Shown in pieces: positions 24,152 through 31,187 of a stretch of 38,179 nucleotides of DNA. How positions within the stretch are numbered: the first letter of the stretch is position 1; each line of letters opens with the position of its first letter. Origin of the DNA: an uncultured Bacteroidota bacterium. GTDB taxonomy: Bacteria > Bacteroidota > Bacteroidia > Bacteroidales > Bacteroidaceae. Location of the stretch: assembly GCA_947168315.1 (NCBI GenBank), contig CAMVLL010000013.1:1-38179 (forward strand). The letters run 5' to 3'. The translations under genes and the position numbers were made by a program. The notes beneath the pieces were generated by a model that ran no database searches, had not been told where the DNA came from, and saw nothing but the letters and a program-made list of their open reading frames with translations.

Positions 24152-24715
24152 TTAGTGACAATGTTCGCATCCGCAACCATCGTGATGATGGTGACCTTCA
24201 CAATCTTCGCAGCCACAGTCGCAACCGTCGTGGCTCATCATATTGATCATTTCTTGGATTTCCTCATTGGTAGCATCACGCATTTCCGTAATCTGTCCTT
24301 CGAAAGTAAGATCTTTACCGGCATAAGGGTGATTTAAGTCAACGGTTACGTTAGTTGGATCTACCTTTGTGATAGTAGCATAGAACTGGTGACCTTCATT
24401 ATCTTGCAGAGGAACAATAGCTCCTTCAAAAATATGCTCATGGTCGAATTTTCCATCGATGTTGAACATGTCTTTTGGTACGGAACGAACTCCTTCCGGC
24501 ATATATTCGCCGTAAGCTTCGGTAGAAGGAATAGTCAAATTGAAGTTATCGCCCTTTGCCAAGCTGACAACCTCATTCTCAAAACGTTCCAATGCCATGC
24601 CCATACCAGAGATAAACTGGAATGGTCGCTGAACAGTTGCTTCTTCCACTAATGTTTTCTTACCATCTTGCATCACGAAAAGTTTGTATGCAACGGTGAT
24701 GAATTTATTTTCCAT
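24152..24715 (-). CDS. slyD: SlyD-like FKBP-type peptidyl-prolyl isomerase with metal-binding tail
   Basis: A 187-aa cytoplasmic isomerase/chaperone. The FKBP part is split by an insert-in-flap (IF) domain as in SlyD: the N-terminal strand (FITVAYKLFV), FQFISGMGMALERFE (about 33-47), LTIPSTEAYGEY, the IF insert (about 70-120), then VDLNHPYAGKDLTFEGQI. The tail from about 161 is rich in His and Cys (GCDCGCEDCEGHHHHDGCG), a nickel- or zinc-binding module, so a role in metal delivery in addition to folding is likely. A -7-like TATCTTTG (minus strand, plus 24769-24776) lies about 55 nt upstream. Confidence 0.9.
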   Translation of the reverse strand: MENKFITVAYKLFVMQDGKKTLVEEATVQRPFQFISGMGMALERFENEVVSLAKGDNFNLTIPSTEAYGEYMPEGVRSVPKDMFNIDGKFDHEHIFEGAIVPLQDNEGHQFYATITKVDPTNVTVDLNHPYAGKDLTFEGQITEMRDATNEEIQEMINMMSHDGCDCGCEDCEGHHHHDGCGCEHCH

Positions 24716-25016
24716 AAATGCGTTATGTTTTTTGTTATTCTATTCAATGATAATGCCTCTCTCGGCTGCAAAGATAATGGAAAAAATCGAAGATATGATA
24801 ATTCCATTAAAAAAGGTGTACTTTTTGATGAATCCTGATGGATAGGTAGCTTGTTTCAATGTATAGATTCACATATATATTCCAATTAGTAGAAAAAACA
24901 AACGAATATTGTCTCTTAAGAAAAGACAATAACGATATGATTTGCGACAATTCGAAAGATAGATTCGATATTTTGTGATAAATTATTATAGAAAATTAAA
25001 TTTTTCTTTTAAAATA
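24716..25016. other. AT-rich intergenic region between slyD and the ilv promoter
   Basis: About 300 nt without a supported gene. It holds the slyD -7-like element near 24769-24776 and an 8-bp inverted repeat TATTGTCT...AGACAATA (24907-24914 and 24924-24931), followed by two copies of ATTCGA near 24953-24970. These could be operator sequences for the ilv promoter, but they may equally be chance in AT-rich DNA. Confidence 0.4.
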
Positions 25017-25048
25017 TTTGTTTGTTCCAATAGAACCATATACCTTTG
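25017..25048 (+). promoter_or_regulatory. Bacteroidetes-type promoter of the ilv operon
   Basis: TTTG (25017-25020), a 20-nt spacer and TACCTTTG (25041-25048) form a full match to the -33/-7 consensus. The predicted start is near 25055, so the transcript begins just before the leader peptide and attenuator. Confidence 0.75.
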
Positions 25049-25069
25049 TCCCGTCAAAATGAAAAGACA

Positions 25070-25144
25070 ATGAAAAATATTATTCTTAATAACTTGTCAG
25101 TCTTGCATCTTATTCTAATCGTCGTGGTGATTCTACCGGGATGA
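25070..25144 (+). CDS. ilvL: ilv leader peptide (24 codons, rich in Ile, Leu and Val)
   Basis: A short ORF starts with ATG at 25070 and stops with TGA at 25142. Of 24 codons, 15 encode isoleucine, leucine or valine, including nine in a row (LILIVVVIL, 25109-25135) just before the final Pro-Gly and stop. This resembles the E. coli ilv leader peptide in kind though not in sequence. The peptide itself probably has no function; translation of its codons would report the supply of charged branched-chain tRNAs. It begins about 15 nt after the predicted transcription start and ends immediately before the antiterminator arm. An ATG at 25059 opens only a four-codon ORF (MKRQ) whose stop overlaps this start. 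Confidence 0.85.
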   Translation: MKNIILNNLSVLHLILIVVVILPG

Positions 25145-25222
25145 GGAGAAAGGCTGTATAGTTATAGGAATACGAATAGTGTTAGATTTTTAGAGCCTTT
25201 CTCCTTGTGGGAAAGGCTTTTT
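25145..25222 (+). promoter_or_regulatory. Transcription attenuator: antiterminator arm plus Rho-independent terminator
   Basis: Arm 2, GGAGAAAGGCT (25145-25155), starts directly after the leader stop codon. Arm 3, AGCCTTTCTCC (25194-25204), is its exact 11-nt reverse complement. Arm 3 can instead pair with arm 4, GGGAAAGGCT (25209-25218): eight pairs, a bulged T, then two more pairs around a TTGT loop, followed by TTTTT. A ribosome that finishes the leader would cover arm 2, letting the 3:4 terminator form. A ribosome stalled at Ile/Leu/Val codons would leave arm 2 free to pair with arm 3 and keep transcription going into ilvD. Confidence 0.85.
25194..25222 (+). terminator. Attenuator terminator hairpin upstream of ilvD
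   Basis: AGCCTTTC (25194-25201) pairs with GAAAGGCT (25211-25218), with an inner CC/GG extension, and is followed by a short T-tract to 25222. It lies 22 nt before the ilvD start and after the promoter, so it can only act by premature termination of the ilv transcript. Confidence 0.85.
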
Positions 25223-25244
25223 ATATAATTATTATTTTAGAAGT

Positions 25245-27047
25245 ATGAAGCATCCGTTACGAAGTGCCGTTTGCACGGAAGGAAGAAGAATGGCAGGCTC
25301 GAGAGCTCTTTGGGTAGCCAATGGTATGAAGCGTAAGATGTTCGGCAAACCAATCATTGCCATCGTGAATTCGTTCACTCAATTTGTGCCAGGACATACT
25401 CATTTGCATGAGATTGGTCAGATTGTGAAGCAAGAAATTGAGAATATGGGCTGTTATGCGGCCGAATTCAATACAATTGCCATTGACGATGGAATCGCCA
25501 TGGGGCACGATGGCATGTTGTATTCACTTCCGTCAAGAGATATTATCGCCGATTCGGTAGAGTATATGGTCAATGCCCACAAAGCGGATGCCATGATTTG
25601 CATTTCCAATTGTGATAAGATTACTCCAGGAATGTTGATGGCTTCGATGCGATTGAACATTCCGACCGTCTTCTGTAGCGGTGGACCGATGGAGGCTGGA
25701 CGATATAAGAATGAGAACTACGATCTGGTAATGGCCATGATCAAGGGAGGCGATGCTTCTGTCAGTGATGAGGAACTGTCGGAAATCGAGAATATCGCAT
25801 GTCCGGGCTGTGGTTGTTGCTCGGGTATGTTCACTGCCAACTCCATGAACTCGTTGACCGAAGCTATCGGTATGGCTTTGCCAGGAAATGGTACCATTTT
25901 GGCTACTCATACCAACCGTGTTCAGCTGTTTAGAGATGCTGCACGACAGATCGTAACTAATGCAATGAAATATTATGAAGAGGGTGACGAGAGTGTTCTT
26001 CCTCGAAATATTGCAACCAAGGAGTCGTTCTTGAACGCTATGACTTTGGATATCGCTATGGGAGGTAGTACAAATACGATTTTGCACTTGCTGGCCATCG
26101 CTCAAGAAGGAGAAGTTGATTTCCAAATGAACGATATTGATGCTCTGAGTAAGAAGGTTCCGTGTCTGTGTAAGCTGGCACCGAACACACAAAAGTATAG
26201 TGTTCAGGAATGTAACCGTGCAGGTGGTATCCTAGGTATTTTGAATGAGTTGGCAAAAGGTGACTTATTGAACCTCCAGGTAAAGCGTGTGGATGGGTTA
26301 ACCTTGGAAGAGGAACTGAAGAAATATGATATTACGGGTGCGACGGTTGGCGAAGAAGCCAAACGTATCTACAGTTCTGCTCCTGGCGGTCGCTTTAGCA
26401 CAAAGATGGGTAGTCAGTCGGCAACCTATGATTCGTTAGATACCGACCGTTCCAATGGATGTATTCGTGATATCGCTCACGCTTATACGAAGGATGGAGG
26501 TTTGGCAGTGCTCTTTGGAAACATCGCTCAAGATGGATGCGTAGTCAAAACAGCTGGTGTTGATGAGTCAATCTGGAAATTTTCCGGACCTGCAAAGGTC
26601 TTTGACTCACAGGAGGAAGCTTGTGACGGAATCCTTGGAGGAAAAGTTGTGTCAGGTGATGTCGTCGTTATCACACATGAGGGACCGAAAGGTGGACCGG
26701 GTATGCAGGAGATGCTTTATCCTACCTCTTATATTAAATCCAAACACTTAGGTAAAGAGTGTGCCTTGATTACTGATGGACGTTTCAGTGGCGGAACGTC
26801 AGGATTGAGTATTGGACATATCTCTCCTGAGGCTGCCGCAGGTGGAAACATTGGTAAGATTGTGGATGGAGATATTATTGAGATTGACATTCCTAACCGT
26901 ACTATCAACGTTCGACTCTCGAATGAGGAATTAGAGGCTCGTCCGATGAGACCGTTGACTCGACAGAGAGTAGTATCAAAGAGTTTACAGGCGTATGCTG
27001 CATCTGTCAGCTCGGCAGACAAAGGTGGTGTACGAATCATAAAATGA
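25245..27047 (+). CDS. ilvD: Dihydroxy-acid dehydratase
   Basis: Dehydrates 2,3-dihydroxy-isovalerate and 2,3-dihydroxy-3-methylvalerate to the 2-oxoacid precursors of valine/leucine and isoleucine. The 600-aa length is normal. Iron-sulfur cluster and metal motifs are visible: [31 protein letters not shown] with the cluster cysteines, [13 protein letters not shown], and the C-terminal [14 protein letters not shown] and [20 protein letters not shown] with the catalytic serine region. It is the first structural gene of the ilv operon, 22 nt after the attenuator terminator, and no internal terminator separates it from ilvB. Confidence 0.97.
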
Positions 27048-28771: not shown

Positions 28772-29350
28772 ATGAATAGGAAATTATATACATTGATTGT
28801 TCACTCCGAGAATATCGCCGGTTTGCTGAATCAGATTACTGCGGTGTTTACTCGTCGACAAATCAATATCGAAAGTTTGAACGTATCAGCATCATCTATC
28901 TCAGGTGTTCATAAATATACAATTACAGCATGGACAACGGAAGATGAAATAGAGAAGGTAAATAAACAGATAGAGAAGAAGATTGATGTGATTAAGTCGA
29001 ATTATTTCACAGACTCGGATATCTATCAACGTGAGATTGCCTTGTATAAACTCTCTACACCCGAGTTTGTACAGAATCCGGAAGCATCAAAGGTGATTCG
29101 TAGCCATGATGCACATATAGTAGAAGTAAACCCAACATTCCTGACAGTAGAAAAAACGGGAGCTGATAGTGAAATCACCAAGTTGTATGAGGAGCTAAGT
29201 GGAATGGGGTGTGTGCTTCAGTTCGTTCGTTCTGGAAGAATTGCTATTACAACGAGTTGTTTTGAGCGAGTAAATGAGTATCTTTGCATGCGTGAAGAGA
29301 AATATCGAAAACAAAAAGCAAAAAAGGATGAATGTACTGAAGAAAGATAA
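28772..29350 (+). CDS. ilvN: Acetolactate synthase, small (regulatory) subunit
   Basis: A 192-aa regulatory subunit that activates the large subunit and mediates valine feedback inhibition in the family. The N-terminal ACT domain (about 3-80) reads LYTLIVHSENIAGLLNQIT, then FTRRQINIESLNVSASSISG. The C-terminal domain (about 85-165) is the usual partner region, with NPTFLTVEKTG and LQFVRSGRIAITT. A charged tail (KYRKQKAKKDECTEER) follows; the thioesterase start codon lies inside its coding sequence, giving a 23-nt overlap. Confidence 0.93.
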   Translation: MNRKLYTLIVHSENIAGLLNQITAVFTRRQINIESLNVSASSISGVHKYTITAWTTEDEIEKVNKQIEKKIDVIKSNYFTDSDIYQREIALYKLSTPEFVQNPEASKVIRSHDAHIVEVNPTFLTVEKTGADSEITKLYEELSGMGCVLQFVRSGRIAITTSCFERVNEYLCMREEKYRKQKAKKDECTEER

Positions 29351-30080
29351 GATAGGAGCCTATCAGTTTGTGGCGGAACCGTTTCATGTAGATTTTAATG
29401 GACGGCTTACCATGAGTGTGCTGGGTAATCATTTATTGAACTGTGCCGGCTTTCATGCTGCCGACCGCGGTTTTGGCATATCTGAACTCAATGAGCATCA
29501 TTATACGTGGGTGTTGTCCCGTTTAGCCATTGAGATGGATGAGTTTCCTTATAAGGATGAACCGTTCAGCATCCAGACATGGGTGGAAAACGTATATCGT
29601 TTGTTCACCGATCGTAACTTTGCTGTTATAGATAAGGACGGGAAACCACTTGGATATGCTCGCTCAGTATGGGCTATGATTGATGTGGACAGTCGAAAAC
29701 CAATGGATTTGGTTGCTATGCATAACGGGCAGATCGCAGAATATATTTGCGATAAGGAATGTCCGATCGAGAAACCAAGTCGTATCAAGGTTACATCCAA
29801 GGAACCGGTTGCCACATACATGACAAAGTACAGTGATATAGATATCAATGGTCATGTGAACAGCATCAAGTACATTGAGCATATCTTGGATTTGTTTCCT
29901 ATCGAGACGTTCAAACAAAAACGTTTAAGACGATTTGAAATGGCTTATGTGGCCGAAAGCTACTATGGCGACCTGCTAAGTTTCTACTGGGATACAGTTG
30001 ATGAACTGGAGTATCACGTAGAAGTACGGAAAAATGATGGTGAGGTTGTTGTTCGTAGCAAGGTCGTATTTACTGAATGA
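29328..30080 (+). CDS. Acyl-ACP thioesterase
   Basis: A 250-aa double hot-dog thioesterase of the FatA/FatB-like bacterial group, which releases fatty acids from acyl carrier protein. The first hot-dog has GNHLLNCAGFHAADRGFGIS and a long helix region with WVLSRLAIEMDEFP. The second has YSDIDINGHVNSIKYIEHIL, holding the D-x-N-x-H-V-N block used in catalysis. The ATG at 29328 is chosen; upstream in-frame codons from 29274 lie deep inside ilvN. The same gene order, with a thioesterase between ilvN and ilvC, occurs to my knowledge in Bacteroides (the BT2075 protein). Why a lipid enzyme sits inside an amino acid operon is unexplained; branched acyl chains are a possible link. Confidence 0.88.
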   Translation: MNVLKKDKIGAYQFVAEPFHVDFNGRLTMSVLGNHLLNCAGFHAADRGFGISELNEHHYTWVLSRLAIEMDEFPYKDEPFSIQTWVENVYRLFTDRNFAVIDKDGKPLGYARSVWAMIDVDSRKPMDLVAMHNGQIAEYICDKECPIEKPSRIKVTSKEPVATYMTKYSDIDINGHVNSIKYIEHILDLFPIETFKQKRLRRFEMAYVAESYYGDLLSFYWDTVDELEYHVEVRKNDGEVVVRSKVVFTE

Positions 30081-30110: not shown

Positions 30111-30128
30111 GGGACAACTTAGTTGCCC
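30111..30128 (+). other. Small hairpin in the leader of ilvC
   Basis: GGG-A-CAAC (30111-30118), loop TTA, GTTG-CCC (30122-30128) forms a seven-pair stem with one bulged A, ending 15 nt before the ilvC ATG. It has no T-tract. It could mark an RNA-processing or translation-control site between the thioesterase and ilvC. Confidence 0.5.
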
Positions 30129-30143
30129 ATAAAAAGAAACAAA

Positions 30144-31187
30144 ATGGCACAAATGAATTTTGGCGGTGTGATGGAAAACATCGTGACACGTGAAGAGTTT
30201 CCATTGGAAAAAGCACGTGAAATTTTGAAAAATGAAACAATCGCTGTTCTCGGTTACGGTATTCAGGGACCTGGACAGGCATGTAATTTACGTGATAATG
30301 GATTTAATGTGATTGTAGGTCAACGTAAAGGAAAGACTTACGATAAGGCTGTTGCTGATGGCTGGAAGCCGGGCGAGACTCTTTTCTCTATCGAGGAAGC
30401 TGTTGAACGTGGTACCATTATCTGTATGTTGCTTTCTGATGCTGGTCAAATGCAGGTTTGGCCTACGATCAAGGATATGATCAAGGCACCTAAAACCTTG
30501 TATTTCTCCCATGGTTTCGCTATCAATTGGAACGATCGTACTGGTGTCGTACCTCCTACAGATATTGATGTGATTATGGTGGCACCGAAAGGTTCGGGTA
30601 CTACTCTTCGTACGATGTTTATGGAAGGTCGTGGTATTAACTCCTCTTATGCTATCTATCAAGATGCTACAGGCAAAGCAAAAGAAAAGACTTTGGCTCT
30701 TGGAGTAGGCGTTGGTTCCGGTTATTTGTTTGAAACCACATTCAAACGTGAGGCTGTCTCCGATTTGACTGGTGAGCGTGGTTCTTTGATGGGAGCTATC
30801 CAAGGTTTATTGCTGGCTCAGTATGAGACTTTGCGTGAGCATGGTCATACTCCTTCTGAAGCGTTCAATGAAACTGTTGAGGAGTTGACTCAGAGTTTGA
30901 TGCCATTGTTTGCCGCAAATGGTATGGACTGGATGTATGCTAACTGTTCAACAACAGCTCAACGTGGAGCTTTGGACTGGATGGGACCGTTCCATGATGC
31001 CATCAAACCAGTAATGGAGAAGTTGTATCACAGCGTGGAGACTGGTACAGAAGCTCAGATCTCAATTGATTCAAATTCAAAACCAGATTATCGTGAGAAA
31101 CTGAATGCAGAACTGAAAGCAATGCACGACAGTGAGATGTGGCGTACTGCAGAGACTGTCCGTCAGCTTCGTCCTGAGAACAATTAG
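30144..31187 (+). CDS. ilvC: Ketol-acid reductoisomerase, resembling the fungal/mitochondrial type
   Basis: Rearranges and reduces acetolactate or acetohydroxybutyrate with NAD(P)H, giving the substrates of IlvD. From the ATG at 30144 it is 347 aa, which fits class I. An in-frame TTG at 30123 lies within the leader hairpin and is rejected. The Rossmann motif is VLGYGIQGPGQA, with the cofactor loop GQRKGKTYD. VAPKGSGTTLRTMF, EGRGINSSYA, FNETVEELTQSLMPLF, CSTTAQRGALDW, SKPDYREKLNAEL and the RPEN ending match, as I recall it, yeast Ilv5 more than the E. coli enzyme. It closes the ilv operon and is followed by a strong terminator. Confidence 0.96.
   Translation: MAQMNFGGVMENIVTREEFPLEKAREILKNETIAVLGYGIQGPGQACNLRDNGFNVIVGQRKGKTYDKAVADGWKPGETLFSIEEAVERGTIICMLLSDAGQMQVWPTIKDMIKAPKTLYFSHGFAINWNDRTGVVPPTDIDVIMVAPKGSGTTLRTMFMEGRGINSSYAIYQDATGKAKEKTLALGVGVGSGYLFETTFKREAVSDLTGERGSLMGAIQGLLLAQYETLREHGHTPSEAFNETVEELTQSLMPLFAANGMDWMYANCSTTAQRGALDWMGPFHDAIKPVMEKLYHSVETGTEAQISIDSNSKPDYREKLNAELKAMHDSEMWRTAETVRQLRPENN

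What the first reader, a model, noticed from the sequence alone, without database searches (positions are those of the whole stretch)
25017..25244. Leader-peptide attenuator controlling the ilv operon in a Bacteroidales genome
Seen directly: a full -33/-7 promoter; a 24-codon ORF with 15 Ile/Leu/Val codons, nine in a row; an 11-nt arm (25145-25155) immediately after the stop codon; its exact complement (25194-25204); and a terminator formed by that complement with 25209-25218 plus a T-tract, all before ilvD. A terminating ribosome would mask arm 2 and favour termination; stalling at branched-chain codons would free it. This is the E. coli ilv logic, with a simpler 2:3:4 design and no evident 1:2 protector stem. 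Attenuation of this kind is best known from Proteobacteria and Actinobacteria; I do not recall a characterised ilv case in Bacteroidota. It also requires transcription-translation coupling and initiation without an evident Shine-Dalgarno sequence.
Basis: partly seen in the sequence, partly recalled or inferred. Interest (0 to 1): 0.9.

Follow-up and report, generated by a model that had tools for sequence, protein, structure and literature searches.

The report
Ribosome-sensing switch before valine-isoleucine genes
In front of the genes that make isoleucine, valine and leucine, this gut bacterium carries a tiny gene whose slow or fast translation probably decides whether the rest is transcribed, a classic kind of bacterial switch that many of its relatives share.

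Summary
A Bacteroides-type promoter precedes a 24-codon ORF (25070-25144) with 15 Ile/Leu/Val codons, then arms 2 (25144-25158), 3 (25191-25205) and 4 (25209-25220) of an antiterminator/terminator pair, then ilvD.

The layout recurs upstream of ilvD in 32 of 32 same-genus regions examined and 65 of 83 regions of an order-wide draw (38 of 48 families), but in 0 of 14 loci titled as other phyla, three of them too short to judge. A finder scores 132 of 195 upstream regions against 1 of 780 shuffles. The arms covary; arm 2 starts about 12 nt past the branched-chain run, and the stop codon lies beside or beyond it.

Best explanation: ribosome-mediated transcription attenuation. His-, Leu- and Trp-rich leaders precede hisG, leuA and trp genes in the order. 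A 2021 flavobacterial paper already reports clues of this kind in the phylum, so this is a new member of a known kind. Translation, termination and amino acid response are untested. Some relatives carry two units in series.

The parts
25017..25020 (+). -33 element TTTG of a Bacteroides-type promoter
   Evidence: sequence; consensus recalled. 98 of the 103 leaders with a -7 box have TTG 14-30 nt before it, no shuffle control made for this
25039..25048 (+). -7 element TATACCTTTG (TAnnTTTG); transcription start expected a few nt downstream
   Evidence: sequence; TAnnTTTG 40-190 nt upstream of arm 2 in 103 of 117 non-redundant leaders vs 10% of mononucleotide shuffles
25070..25144 (+). leader-peptide ORF, 24 codons, 15 Ile/Leu/Val, TGA at 25142-25144
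   Evidence: recurrence; shuffle control
25098..25116 (+). arm 1 inside the leader ORF: 25098-25104 and 25114-25116 predicted to pair with 25147-25156 of arm 2
   Evidence: fold of 25053-25190, -35.1 kcal/mol; synonymous-codon control over 100 leaders
25109..25135 (+). nine consecutive branched-chain codons (L I L I V V V I L): proposed stall site
   Evidence: sequence; stalls at codons 25103-25130 give predicted P(terminator) 0.00-0.02, but the run's last codon, CTA 25133, already gives 0.91
25144..25158 (+). arm 2 (antiterminator, 5' strand)
   Evidence: 2:3 hairpin -23.8 kcal/mol
25191..25205 (+). arm 3, shared by antiterminator (2:3) and terminator (3:4)
   Evidence: covariation
25209..25220 (+). 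arm 4, 3' strand of the intrinsic terminator
   Evidence: 3:4 hairpin -16.3 kcal/mol
25218..25222 (+). T-tract; expected end of the short transcript
   Evidence: sequence
25245..27047 (+). ilvD, dihydroxy-acid dehydratase, first structural gene
   Evidence: NF009103 1018.9 bits
27065..28762 (+). ilvB, acetolactate synthase large subunit
   Evidence: TIGR00118 696.7 bits
28772..29350 (+). ilvN/ilvH, acetolactate synthase small subunit
   Evidence: TIGR00119 91.7 bits
29274..30080 (+). acyl-ACP thioesterase gene within the cluster
   Evidence: PF01643 72.7 bits, PF20791 50.2 bits; the ORF as called overlaps the previous one
30123..31187 (+). ilvC, ketol-acid reductoisomerase
   Evidence: TIGR00465 310.8 bits

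Best explanation
A ribosome-mediated (leader-peptide) transcription attenuator of the ilvD-ilvB-ilvN-[thioesterase]-ilvC cluster. Transcription from the TTTG/TATACCTTTG promoter yields an RNA with the 24-codon leader near its 5' end. If charged Ile/Leu/Val tRNAs are plentiful, the ribosome reaches the stop codon at 25142, its front covers arm 2, arm 3 pairs with arm 4 and RNA polymerase stops near 25222. If they are scarce, the ribosome stalls in the branched-chain run with its front short of arm 2, arm 2 captures arm 3 before arm 4 emerges, and transcription runs into ilvD. With no ribosome, arm 1 in the leader ORF holds arm 2 and the terminator forms by default. Shown here by computation: anatomy, recurrence, covariation, geometry, predicted switch. 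Inferred: translation of the leader, termination in vivo, coupling of ribosome and polymerase, amino acid response.
For: Recurrence (rule with at least 6 I/L/V in ten residues plus terminator): 32 of 32 same-genus upstream regions examined (one further same-genus match not fetched), 65 of 83 order-wide regions in 38 of 48 families (41 adding leaders seen by eye), 0 of 14 regions titled as other phyla, three of these with under 200 nt available. Specificity: 132 of 195 vs 1 of 780 shuffles at threshold 7; 136 vs 7 at threshold 6. 2:3 pairing: 62 of 117 non-redundant leaders pair at 9 of 9 core positions vs 3% of 585 controls in which the arm-2 region was shuffled and searched the same way; own arms bind better than permuted partners, -11.67 vs -10.10 +- 0.18 kcal/mol, 0 of 2000 permutations. 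Covariation: 56 double-change cells for 3:2 vs 9.9 mean (maximum 21) and 82 for 3:4 vs 12.7 (maximum 23) in 500 row permutations; 12 of 100 leaders change arm 3 at two or more columns with both partners following. Geometry: median 12 nt from the last codon of the branched-chain run to the arm 2 core; stop codon ends -7 to +4 nt from arm 2 start in 64 of 100 and +6 to +35 in 36 of 100. Protector stem: arm 2 pairing with its 5' side 0.75 vs 0.58 for synonymous recodings, higher in 92 of 100. Switch: arm 3 is held by upstream sequence before arm 4 emerges with the ribosome mid-run, and not at the stop, in 96 of 100 (11-nt footprint); in the window P(terminator) is 0.00-0.02 for stalls at 25103-25130 and 0.94 at the stop and at the first two codons.
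Against: With arm 4 present at equilibrium only 29 of 100 leaders (11-nt footprint) are predicted to flip, so most need capture of arm 3 before arm 4 is made. In the window the last codon of the nine-codon run (CTA 25133) already predicts termination, 0.91, and stalls at the early codons 25079-25085 give mixed values, 0.15-0.60. In one search the own arm 3 ranks only at a median of 38 among 116 alternatives, and for 57 leaders sorted as lacking CCTTTC the own arm 3 (-10.4) is no better than CCTTTC arms (-10.7); that sorting was contaminated by leaders whose CCTTTC was cut by the hairpin bounds. In one search two 3:2 measures (pair types 22, columns with double change 8) were equalled by the best of 500 permutations. 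The 100 leaders were chosen from 117 for at least 8 of 9 paired 2:3 positions, which inflates permutation contrasts; so does relatedness. Without a ribosome P(terminator) exceeds 0.5 in 99 of 100 at equilibrium, but arm 3 is free of upstream pairing before arm 4 emerges in only 61 of 100. 18 of 83 order-wide regions and 27 of 66 named Bacteroidota loci lack a detected unit, among them 8 of 11 loci titled Prevotella or Prevotellaceae by my count of the rule's output, or 9 with L071, which has a leader by eye; one counted positive of those 11, L061, is probably false. No RNA or protein data were seen. A short ATG ORF (25059-25073) precedes and overlaps the leader start.
Confidence: 0.93

Rival explanations
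1. The ORF encodes a functional small hydrophobic (membrane) protein, and the terminator merely insulates or trims its transcript.
For: About half of the residues are I/L/V (50.6% over 116 leaders), so the peptides are hydrophobic; short ORFs of this kind can be real proteins.
Against: Length, start, end and residues drift between families while I, L and V interchange; in 33 of 100 leaders the stop ends 11 nt or more past the arm 2 start, so the peptide's C-terminus is read from arm 2 itself. In the same order his leaders are His-rich and trp leaders Trp-rich, matching the pathway, not a membrane role. Arm 2 covaries with arm 3.
Confidence: 0.02
2. The terminator is controlled by an RNA-binding protein, small RNA or metabolite (riboswitch or T-box-like), and the ORF is incidental.
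For: The antiterminator/terminator layout alone is shared with riboswitches and T-boxes; a GTATG/GTATA motif within 22 nt 3' of the arm 2 core is present in 38 of 100 leaders against 9% of shuffles and is not explained.
Against: No Rfam family at gathering score in the window; with a permissive threshold 10 matches, all below their gathering scores. The codon runs match the pathway in four operon types, and the distance from run to arm 2 is nearly constant.
Confidence: 0.03
3. The leader acts at translation of ilvD (coupling or occlusion of its start) rather than at transcription.
For: Leader ORFs may raise translation of the next gene by reinitiation in many phyla including Bacteroidetes (PMC4833913, passages).
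Against: The stop codon lies 100 nt before the ilvD start, and a hairpin with T-tract stands between them; in that paper the favoured distance in Bacteroidetes is 11-14 bp.
Confidence: 0.02

Closest known systems
E. coli ilvGMEDA and ilvBN leader attenuators (recalled)
   Same: Branched-chain-rich leader peptide, 1:2, 2:3 and 3:4 stems, terminator before the first ilv gene.
   Different: The cluster here starts with ilvD; initiation without an evident Shine-Dalgarno sequence behind a Bacteroides-type promoter; homology of leader sequences was not tested.
ilvB-II motif of Corynebacterium and the ilvB-OMG and Leptospira ilvB motifs (PMC10272879: abstract and passages)
   Same: uORF rich in branched-chain codons upstream of an ilv gene, with a terminator stem in ilvB-II.
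   Different: Other lineages and gene; those motifs were not aligned with this one here.
Leader-peptide attenuation clues in Flavobacterium psychrophilum (PMC9723704: passages)
   Same: Same phylum, amino acid biosynthesis operons, same proposed mechanism.
   Different: A brief statement in a transcriptome paper; the operons are not named in the passages seen and the supplement was not read.
Tandem attenuators of Salmonella mgtCBR (PMC3641672: search listing and start of abstract only)
   Same: Two short ORFs in one leader region, like the two-unit leaders in some relatives.
   Different: Different genes; the window itself has a single unit.

Membership tests
Ribosome-mediated (leader-peptide) transcription attenuators | Short ORF enriched in codons for the product of the downstream pathway | tested here: met
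   15 of 24 codons I/L/V before ilvD; recurrence and shuffles
Ribosome-mediated (leader-peptide) transcription attenuators | Mutually exclusive antiterminator (2:3) and intrinsic terminator (3:4) | tested here: met
   mixed detail told under evidence against
Ribosome-mediated (leader-peptide) transcription attenuators | Protector stem 1:2 inside the leader ORF | tested here: met
   window fold; synonymous control (0.75 vs 0.58; 92 of 100). Model stopped before arm 4 weaker, 61 of 100
Ribosome-mediated (leader-peptide) transcription attenuators | Ribosome at the stop masks arm 2, ribosome at the regulatory codons does not | tested here: met
   geometry; switch prediction 96 of 100; window codon by codon; equilibrium version only 29 of 100
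Ribosome-mediated (leader-peptide) transcription attenuators | Leader ORF is translated | not testable with these tools
   no ribosome profiling or reporter data
Ribosome-mediated (leader-peptide) transcription attenuators | Premature termination responds to charging of the cognate tRNA | not testable with these tools
   no RNA-seq or 3'-end data
Described Rfam families (amino acid leaders, T-box, riboswitches) | Match at or above gathering score | tested here: not met
   0 matches in the window; 10 matches below gathering score in 24950-25260
E. coli ilv leaders as homologues | Sequence homology of the leader | not tested
   only the working principle is compared

The most novel reading that the evidence does not exclude
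Ribosome-mediated attenuation is a general and old way of controlling ilv, leu, his and trp genes in Bacteroidales (and perhaps the wider class), working with initiation that lacks an evident Shine-Dalgarno sequence and therefore implying close ribosome-polymerase coupling in this phylum; in several lineages two leader-terminator units stand in series before ilvD, giving a two-gate control that I did not find described for amino acid operons in the searches made.
Probability: 0.5. Interest if true: 0.65.

Novelty: new member of a known kind. Interest (0 to 1): 0.5.

Why it matters
If right, many gut and environmental Bacteroidales control branched-chain (and His, Leu, Trp) synthesis by the textbook ribosome-sensing switch. 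The principle is old, but its use across the order would be a natural, testable sign that ribosomes closely follow RNA polymerase in Bacteroidota, and that short leader ORFs start efficiently without an evident Shine-Dalgarno sequence. It could also explain long 5' leaders and unassigned short RNAs before these operons and offer amino-acid-responsive parts for laboratory Bacteroides.

Tried and rejected
The terminator scanner gave no hit and the sigma-70 scan no useful one in 24700-25300. My first terminator finder missed hairpins whose stem ran into the T-tract; it was rewritten and all counts use the rewrite. A MAFFT alignment of the close group (39 distinct of 44 leaders) was too conserved in the arms to show covariation, so the distant set was used. 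Sorting leaders by the string CCTTTC was abandoned because the hairpin bounds cut that string in some leaders; its result went against the reading and is given under evidence against. The automatic rule missed leaders visible by eye (L041, L042, L071, L089, L140, L162, L171, L189) and accepted L061, probably a false hit. In the his/leu/trp check the rule missed L217, L218 and L235, chose wrong starts for L228 and L234 (right ones), and gave mostly poor arm 2 matches for trp; 2:3 pairing for trp is not claimed. The stall table used a frame off by one base; one search is the corrected one. The idea that LHI codons pair with the GTATGTA motif was not tested separately. ilvD upstream regions of 20 more distant class members were judged from their best ORF, nine of them read in full: four (L196, L206, L212, L213) look like similar leaders. 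Rows dropped before counts: 136 leaders reduced to 117 by similarity; 17 of 117 with fewer than 8 paired 2:3 positions left out; L061 left out; L149 left out of the tandem list because its first unit looks like part of an upstream gene.

Full report
What is there. The window carries, before ilvD, a Bacteroides-type promoter (TTTG 25017-25020; TATACCTTTG 25039-25048; consensus recalled), a leader ORF at 25070-25144 (MKNIILNNLSVLHLILIVVVILPG*, 15 of 24 codons I/L/V, nine in a row at 25109-25135), and three arms: 25144-25158, 25191-25205 and 25209-25220, with TTTTT at 25218-25222. The region 25050-25235 folds at -52.6 kcal/mol, z -4.78, with 0 of 200 shuffles as good. Downstream lie ilvD, ilvB, ilvN, an acyl-ACP thioesterase gene and ilvC.

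More than chance. A rule that asks for an ORF with at least 7 I/L/V in ten residues followed within 110 nt by a terminator succeeds in 132 of 195 ilvD upstream regions and in 1 of 780 dinucleotide shuffles; with a threshold of 6 the numbers are 136 of 195 and 7 of 780. The 195 regions comprise close and distant relatives and outgroups and include some duplicates (the same contig from two collections); seven have under 250 nt available. After removal of similar leaders 117 of 136 remain.

Distribution (threshold 6). Same genus: 32 of 32 upstream regions examined, one further same-genus match not fetched. Order-wide draw: 65 of 83 upstream regions, 38 of 48 families, 41 families when leaders seen by eye are added; 84 matches had been found, one sat at a contig end. 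Named Bacteroidota-titled loci: 39 of 66, one of them (L061) probably false. Loci titled as Spirochaetes, Desulfobulbaceae and allies, Akkermansiaceae and Fibrobacter: 0 of 14, three of them with under 200 nt upstream. Of 11 loci titled Prevotella or Prevotellaceae, 8 lack the unit (L049 has only 195 nt), L061 is doubtful, L079 has it, and L071 has a leader by eye that the rule missed; the IlvD of some of these is among the closest to the window's. Of 20 distant class members, four show a similar layout by eye, for example L212 with MYPLVILLSFIILIGFTK and arms of different sequence.

Pairing. Searching each leader for a 9-nt arm 3 and its best arm 2 gives 9 of 9 pairs in 62 of 117 and at least 8 in 100 of 117; shuffling the arm-2 region and searching the same way gives 9 of 9 in 3% and at least 8 in 34% of 585 controls. 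Own arm 2 and arm 3 bind at -11.67 kcal/mol on average, permuted partners at -10.10 with standard deviation 0.18, 0 of 2000 permutations as low; yet the own arm 3 ranks at a median of 38 among 116 alternatives, as expected where many leaders share one arm sequence, and a crude subgroup without CCTTTC showed no preference for its own arms (-10.4 vs -10.7). In register, the 3:2 and 3:4 helices show 56 and 82 cells with changes on both sides against 9.9 and 12.7 on row permutation; the counts of pair types and of changed columns for 3:2 were equalled by the best of 500 permutations. In 12 of 100 leaders arm 3 changed at two or more columns with arm 2 and arm 4 both following. Arm 2 was selected for complementarity and sequences are related, so permutation contrasts are generous; the control repeats the selection.

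Geometry. The end of the last branched-chain codon of the densest stretch is a median 12 nt before the arm 2 core, mostly 7 to 16. The stop codon ends between -7 and +4 nt of the arm 2 start in 64 of 100 leaders and at +6 to +35 in 36. With a ribosome front about 11 nt past the A-site codon (recalled), a ribosome in the run leaves arm 2 free and one at the stop covers it. Folding agrees: arm 3 is held by upstream sequence before arm 4 emerges with the ribosome mid-run and not at the stop in 96 of 100 leaders (96 and 94 with footprints of 9 and 13). With arm 4 present at equilibrium only 29 of 100 flip (34 and 23 with 9 and 13), so most depend on the order of synthesis. The window flips even at equilibrium: P(terminator) 0.00-0.02 for codons 25103-25130, 0.91 at CTA 25133, 0.94 at the stop and at the first two codons, with mixed values 0.15-0.60 at 25079-25085.

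Protector stem. The window RNA before arm 3 folds at -35.1 kcal/mol with 25147-25156 paired to 25098-25104 and 25114-25116 in the leader ORF. Over 100 leaders the arm 2 core pairs with its 5' side with mean probability 0.75, against 0.58 for synonymous recodings, higher in 92. In the model stopped before arm 4 emerges, arm 3 is free of upstream pairing without a ribosome in only 61 of 100, so protection is predicted to be incomplete.

Promoter and start. TAnnTTTG lies 40-190 nt upstream of arm 2 in 103 of 117 leaders against 10% of mononucleotide shuffles; the leader start mostly follows within 14-40 nt. AGGA, GGAG or GAGG 4-18 nt before the start occurs in 2 of 117 leaders.

Other operons. 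In ten chosen genomes of the order (the window's own, four of its family, five from four other families) His-rich leaders with terminators precede hisG in 9 of 10 by eye (7 by the automatic rule), Leu-containing leaders with terminators precede leuA in 8 of 10 by eye, and leaders with WW or WWW lie upstream of trpE in 7 of 8 genomes with sequence available, in six of them about 1,400 nt upstream, before other genes. The window's own genome has MKEVLSHHHHLPNE* before hisG and MKSVNISILLSGIILLLEPSNRK* before leuA; its trpE lies at a contig end.

Two units in series. Seven relatives carry two leader-terminator units before ilvD: L103 (Marinifilum sp. D714), L122 (Labilibaculum sp. K2S), L123, L177, L184 and L195 by script and L046 by eye. 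In all seven the TAnnTTTG matches found lie upstream of both units. Of the six tested, both units have an arm 2 with at least 8 of 9 pairs in L046 and L184, one unit in L103, L122 and L195, and neither in L123.

Literature. No paper found treats leader-peptide attenuation in Bacteroidales as its subject. Searches: in open-licence PubMed Central only. Seen: PMC9723704 (passages): strong clues for leader-peptide attenuation upstream of amino acid biosynthesis operons in a flavobacterium. PMC7366714 (passages): B. thetaiotaomicron 5' UTRs with short ORFs reminiscent of leader peptides, the example given not being ilv. PMC10272879 (abstract, passages): ilvB uORF motifs in other lineages. PMC4833913 (passages), PMC8305728 (passages). 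PMC2965389, PMC1262725 and PMC3641672: search listings only. Lopatovskaya et al. 2010: citation only, not held; from uncertain memory it may already list Bacteroidetes.

Verdict. A known mechanism in a less expected place, with comparative evidence that is strong and no experiment yet. New member of a known kind.

Noticed in passing
L046, L103, L122, L123, L177, L184, L195 (upstream of ilvD): Two leader-ORF plus terminator units in series before ilvD, with TAnnTTTG matches only upstream of both.
   Followed up: partly
L222, L228 (own genome); L216-L235, L238-L245: His-rich, Leu-containing and Trp-rich leader ORFs with terminators before hisG, leuA and trp genes of the same order.
   Followed up: partly
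L047-L049, L052-L054, L057, L096; also L050, L051, L062, L063, L070, L072, L127-L129: No unit found before ilvD in 8 of 11 Prevotella- or Prevotellaceae-titled loci and in these other close IlvD relatives; apparent loss.
   Followed up: no
window 25059-25073: A short ORF ATGAAAAGACAATGA (four codons and stop) overlaps the leader start by ATGA; not present in the L002 stretch, and L003 has a different nearby ATG.
   Followed up: no
within 22 nt 3' of the arm 2 core, e.g. L004, L029, L143: GTATG or GTATA occurs in 38 of 100 leaders against 9% of shuffles; GTATGTAG supplies the stop codon in 9 of 100. Not explained by the 2:3 helix.
   Followed up: partly
L196, L206, L212, L213: Distant class members with a more distant ilvD also show I/V-rich short ORFs before hairpins with T-rich tails, by eye.
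   Followed up: partly
window 29274-30080: An acyl-ACP thioesterase gene sits between ilvN and ilvC.
   Followed up: no
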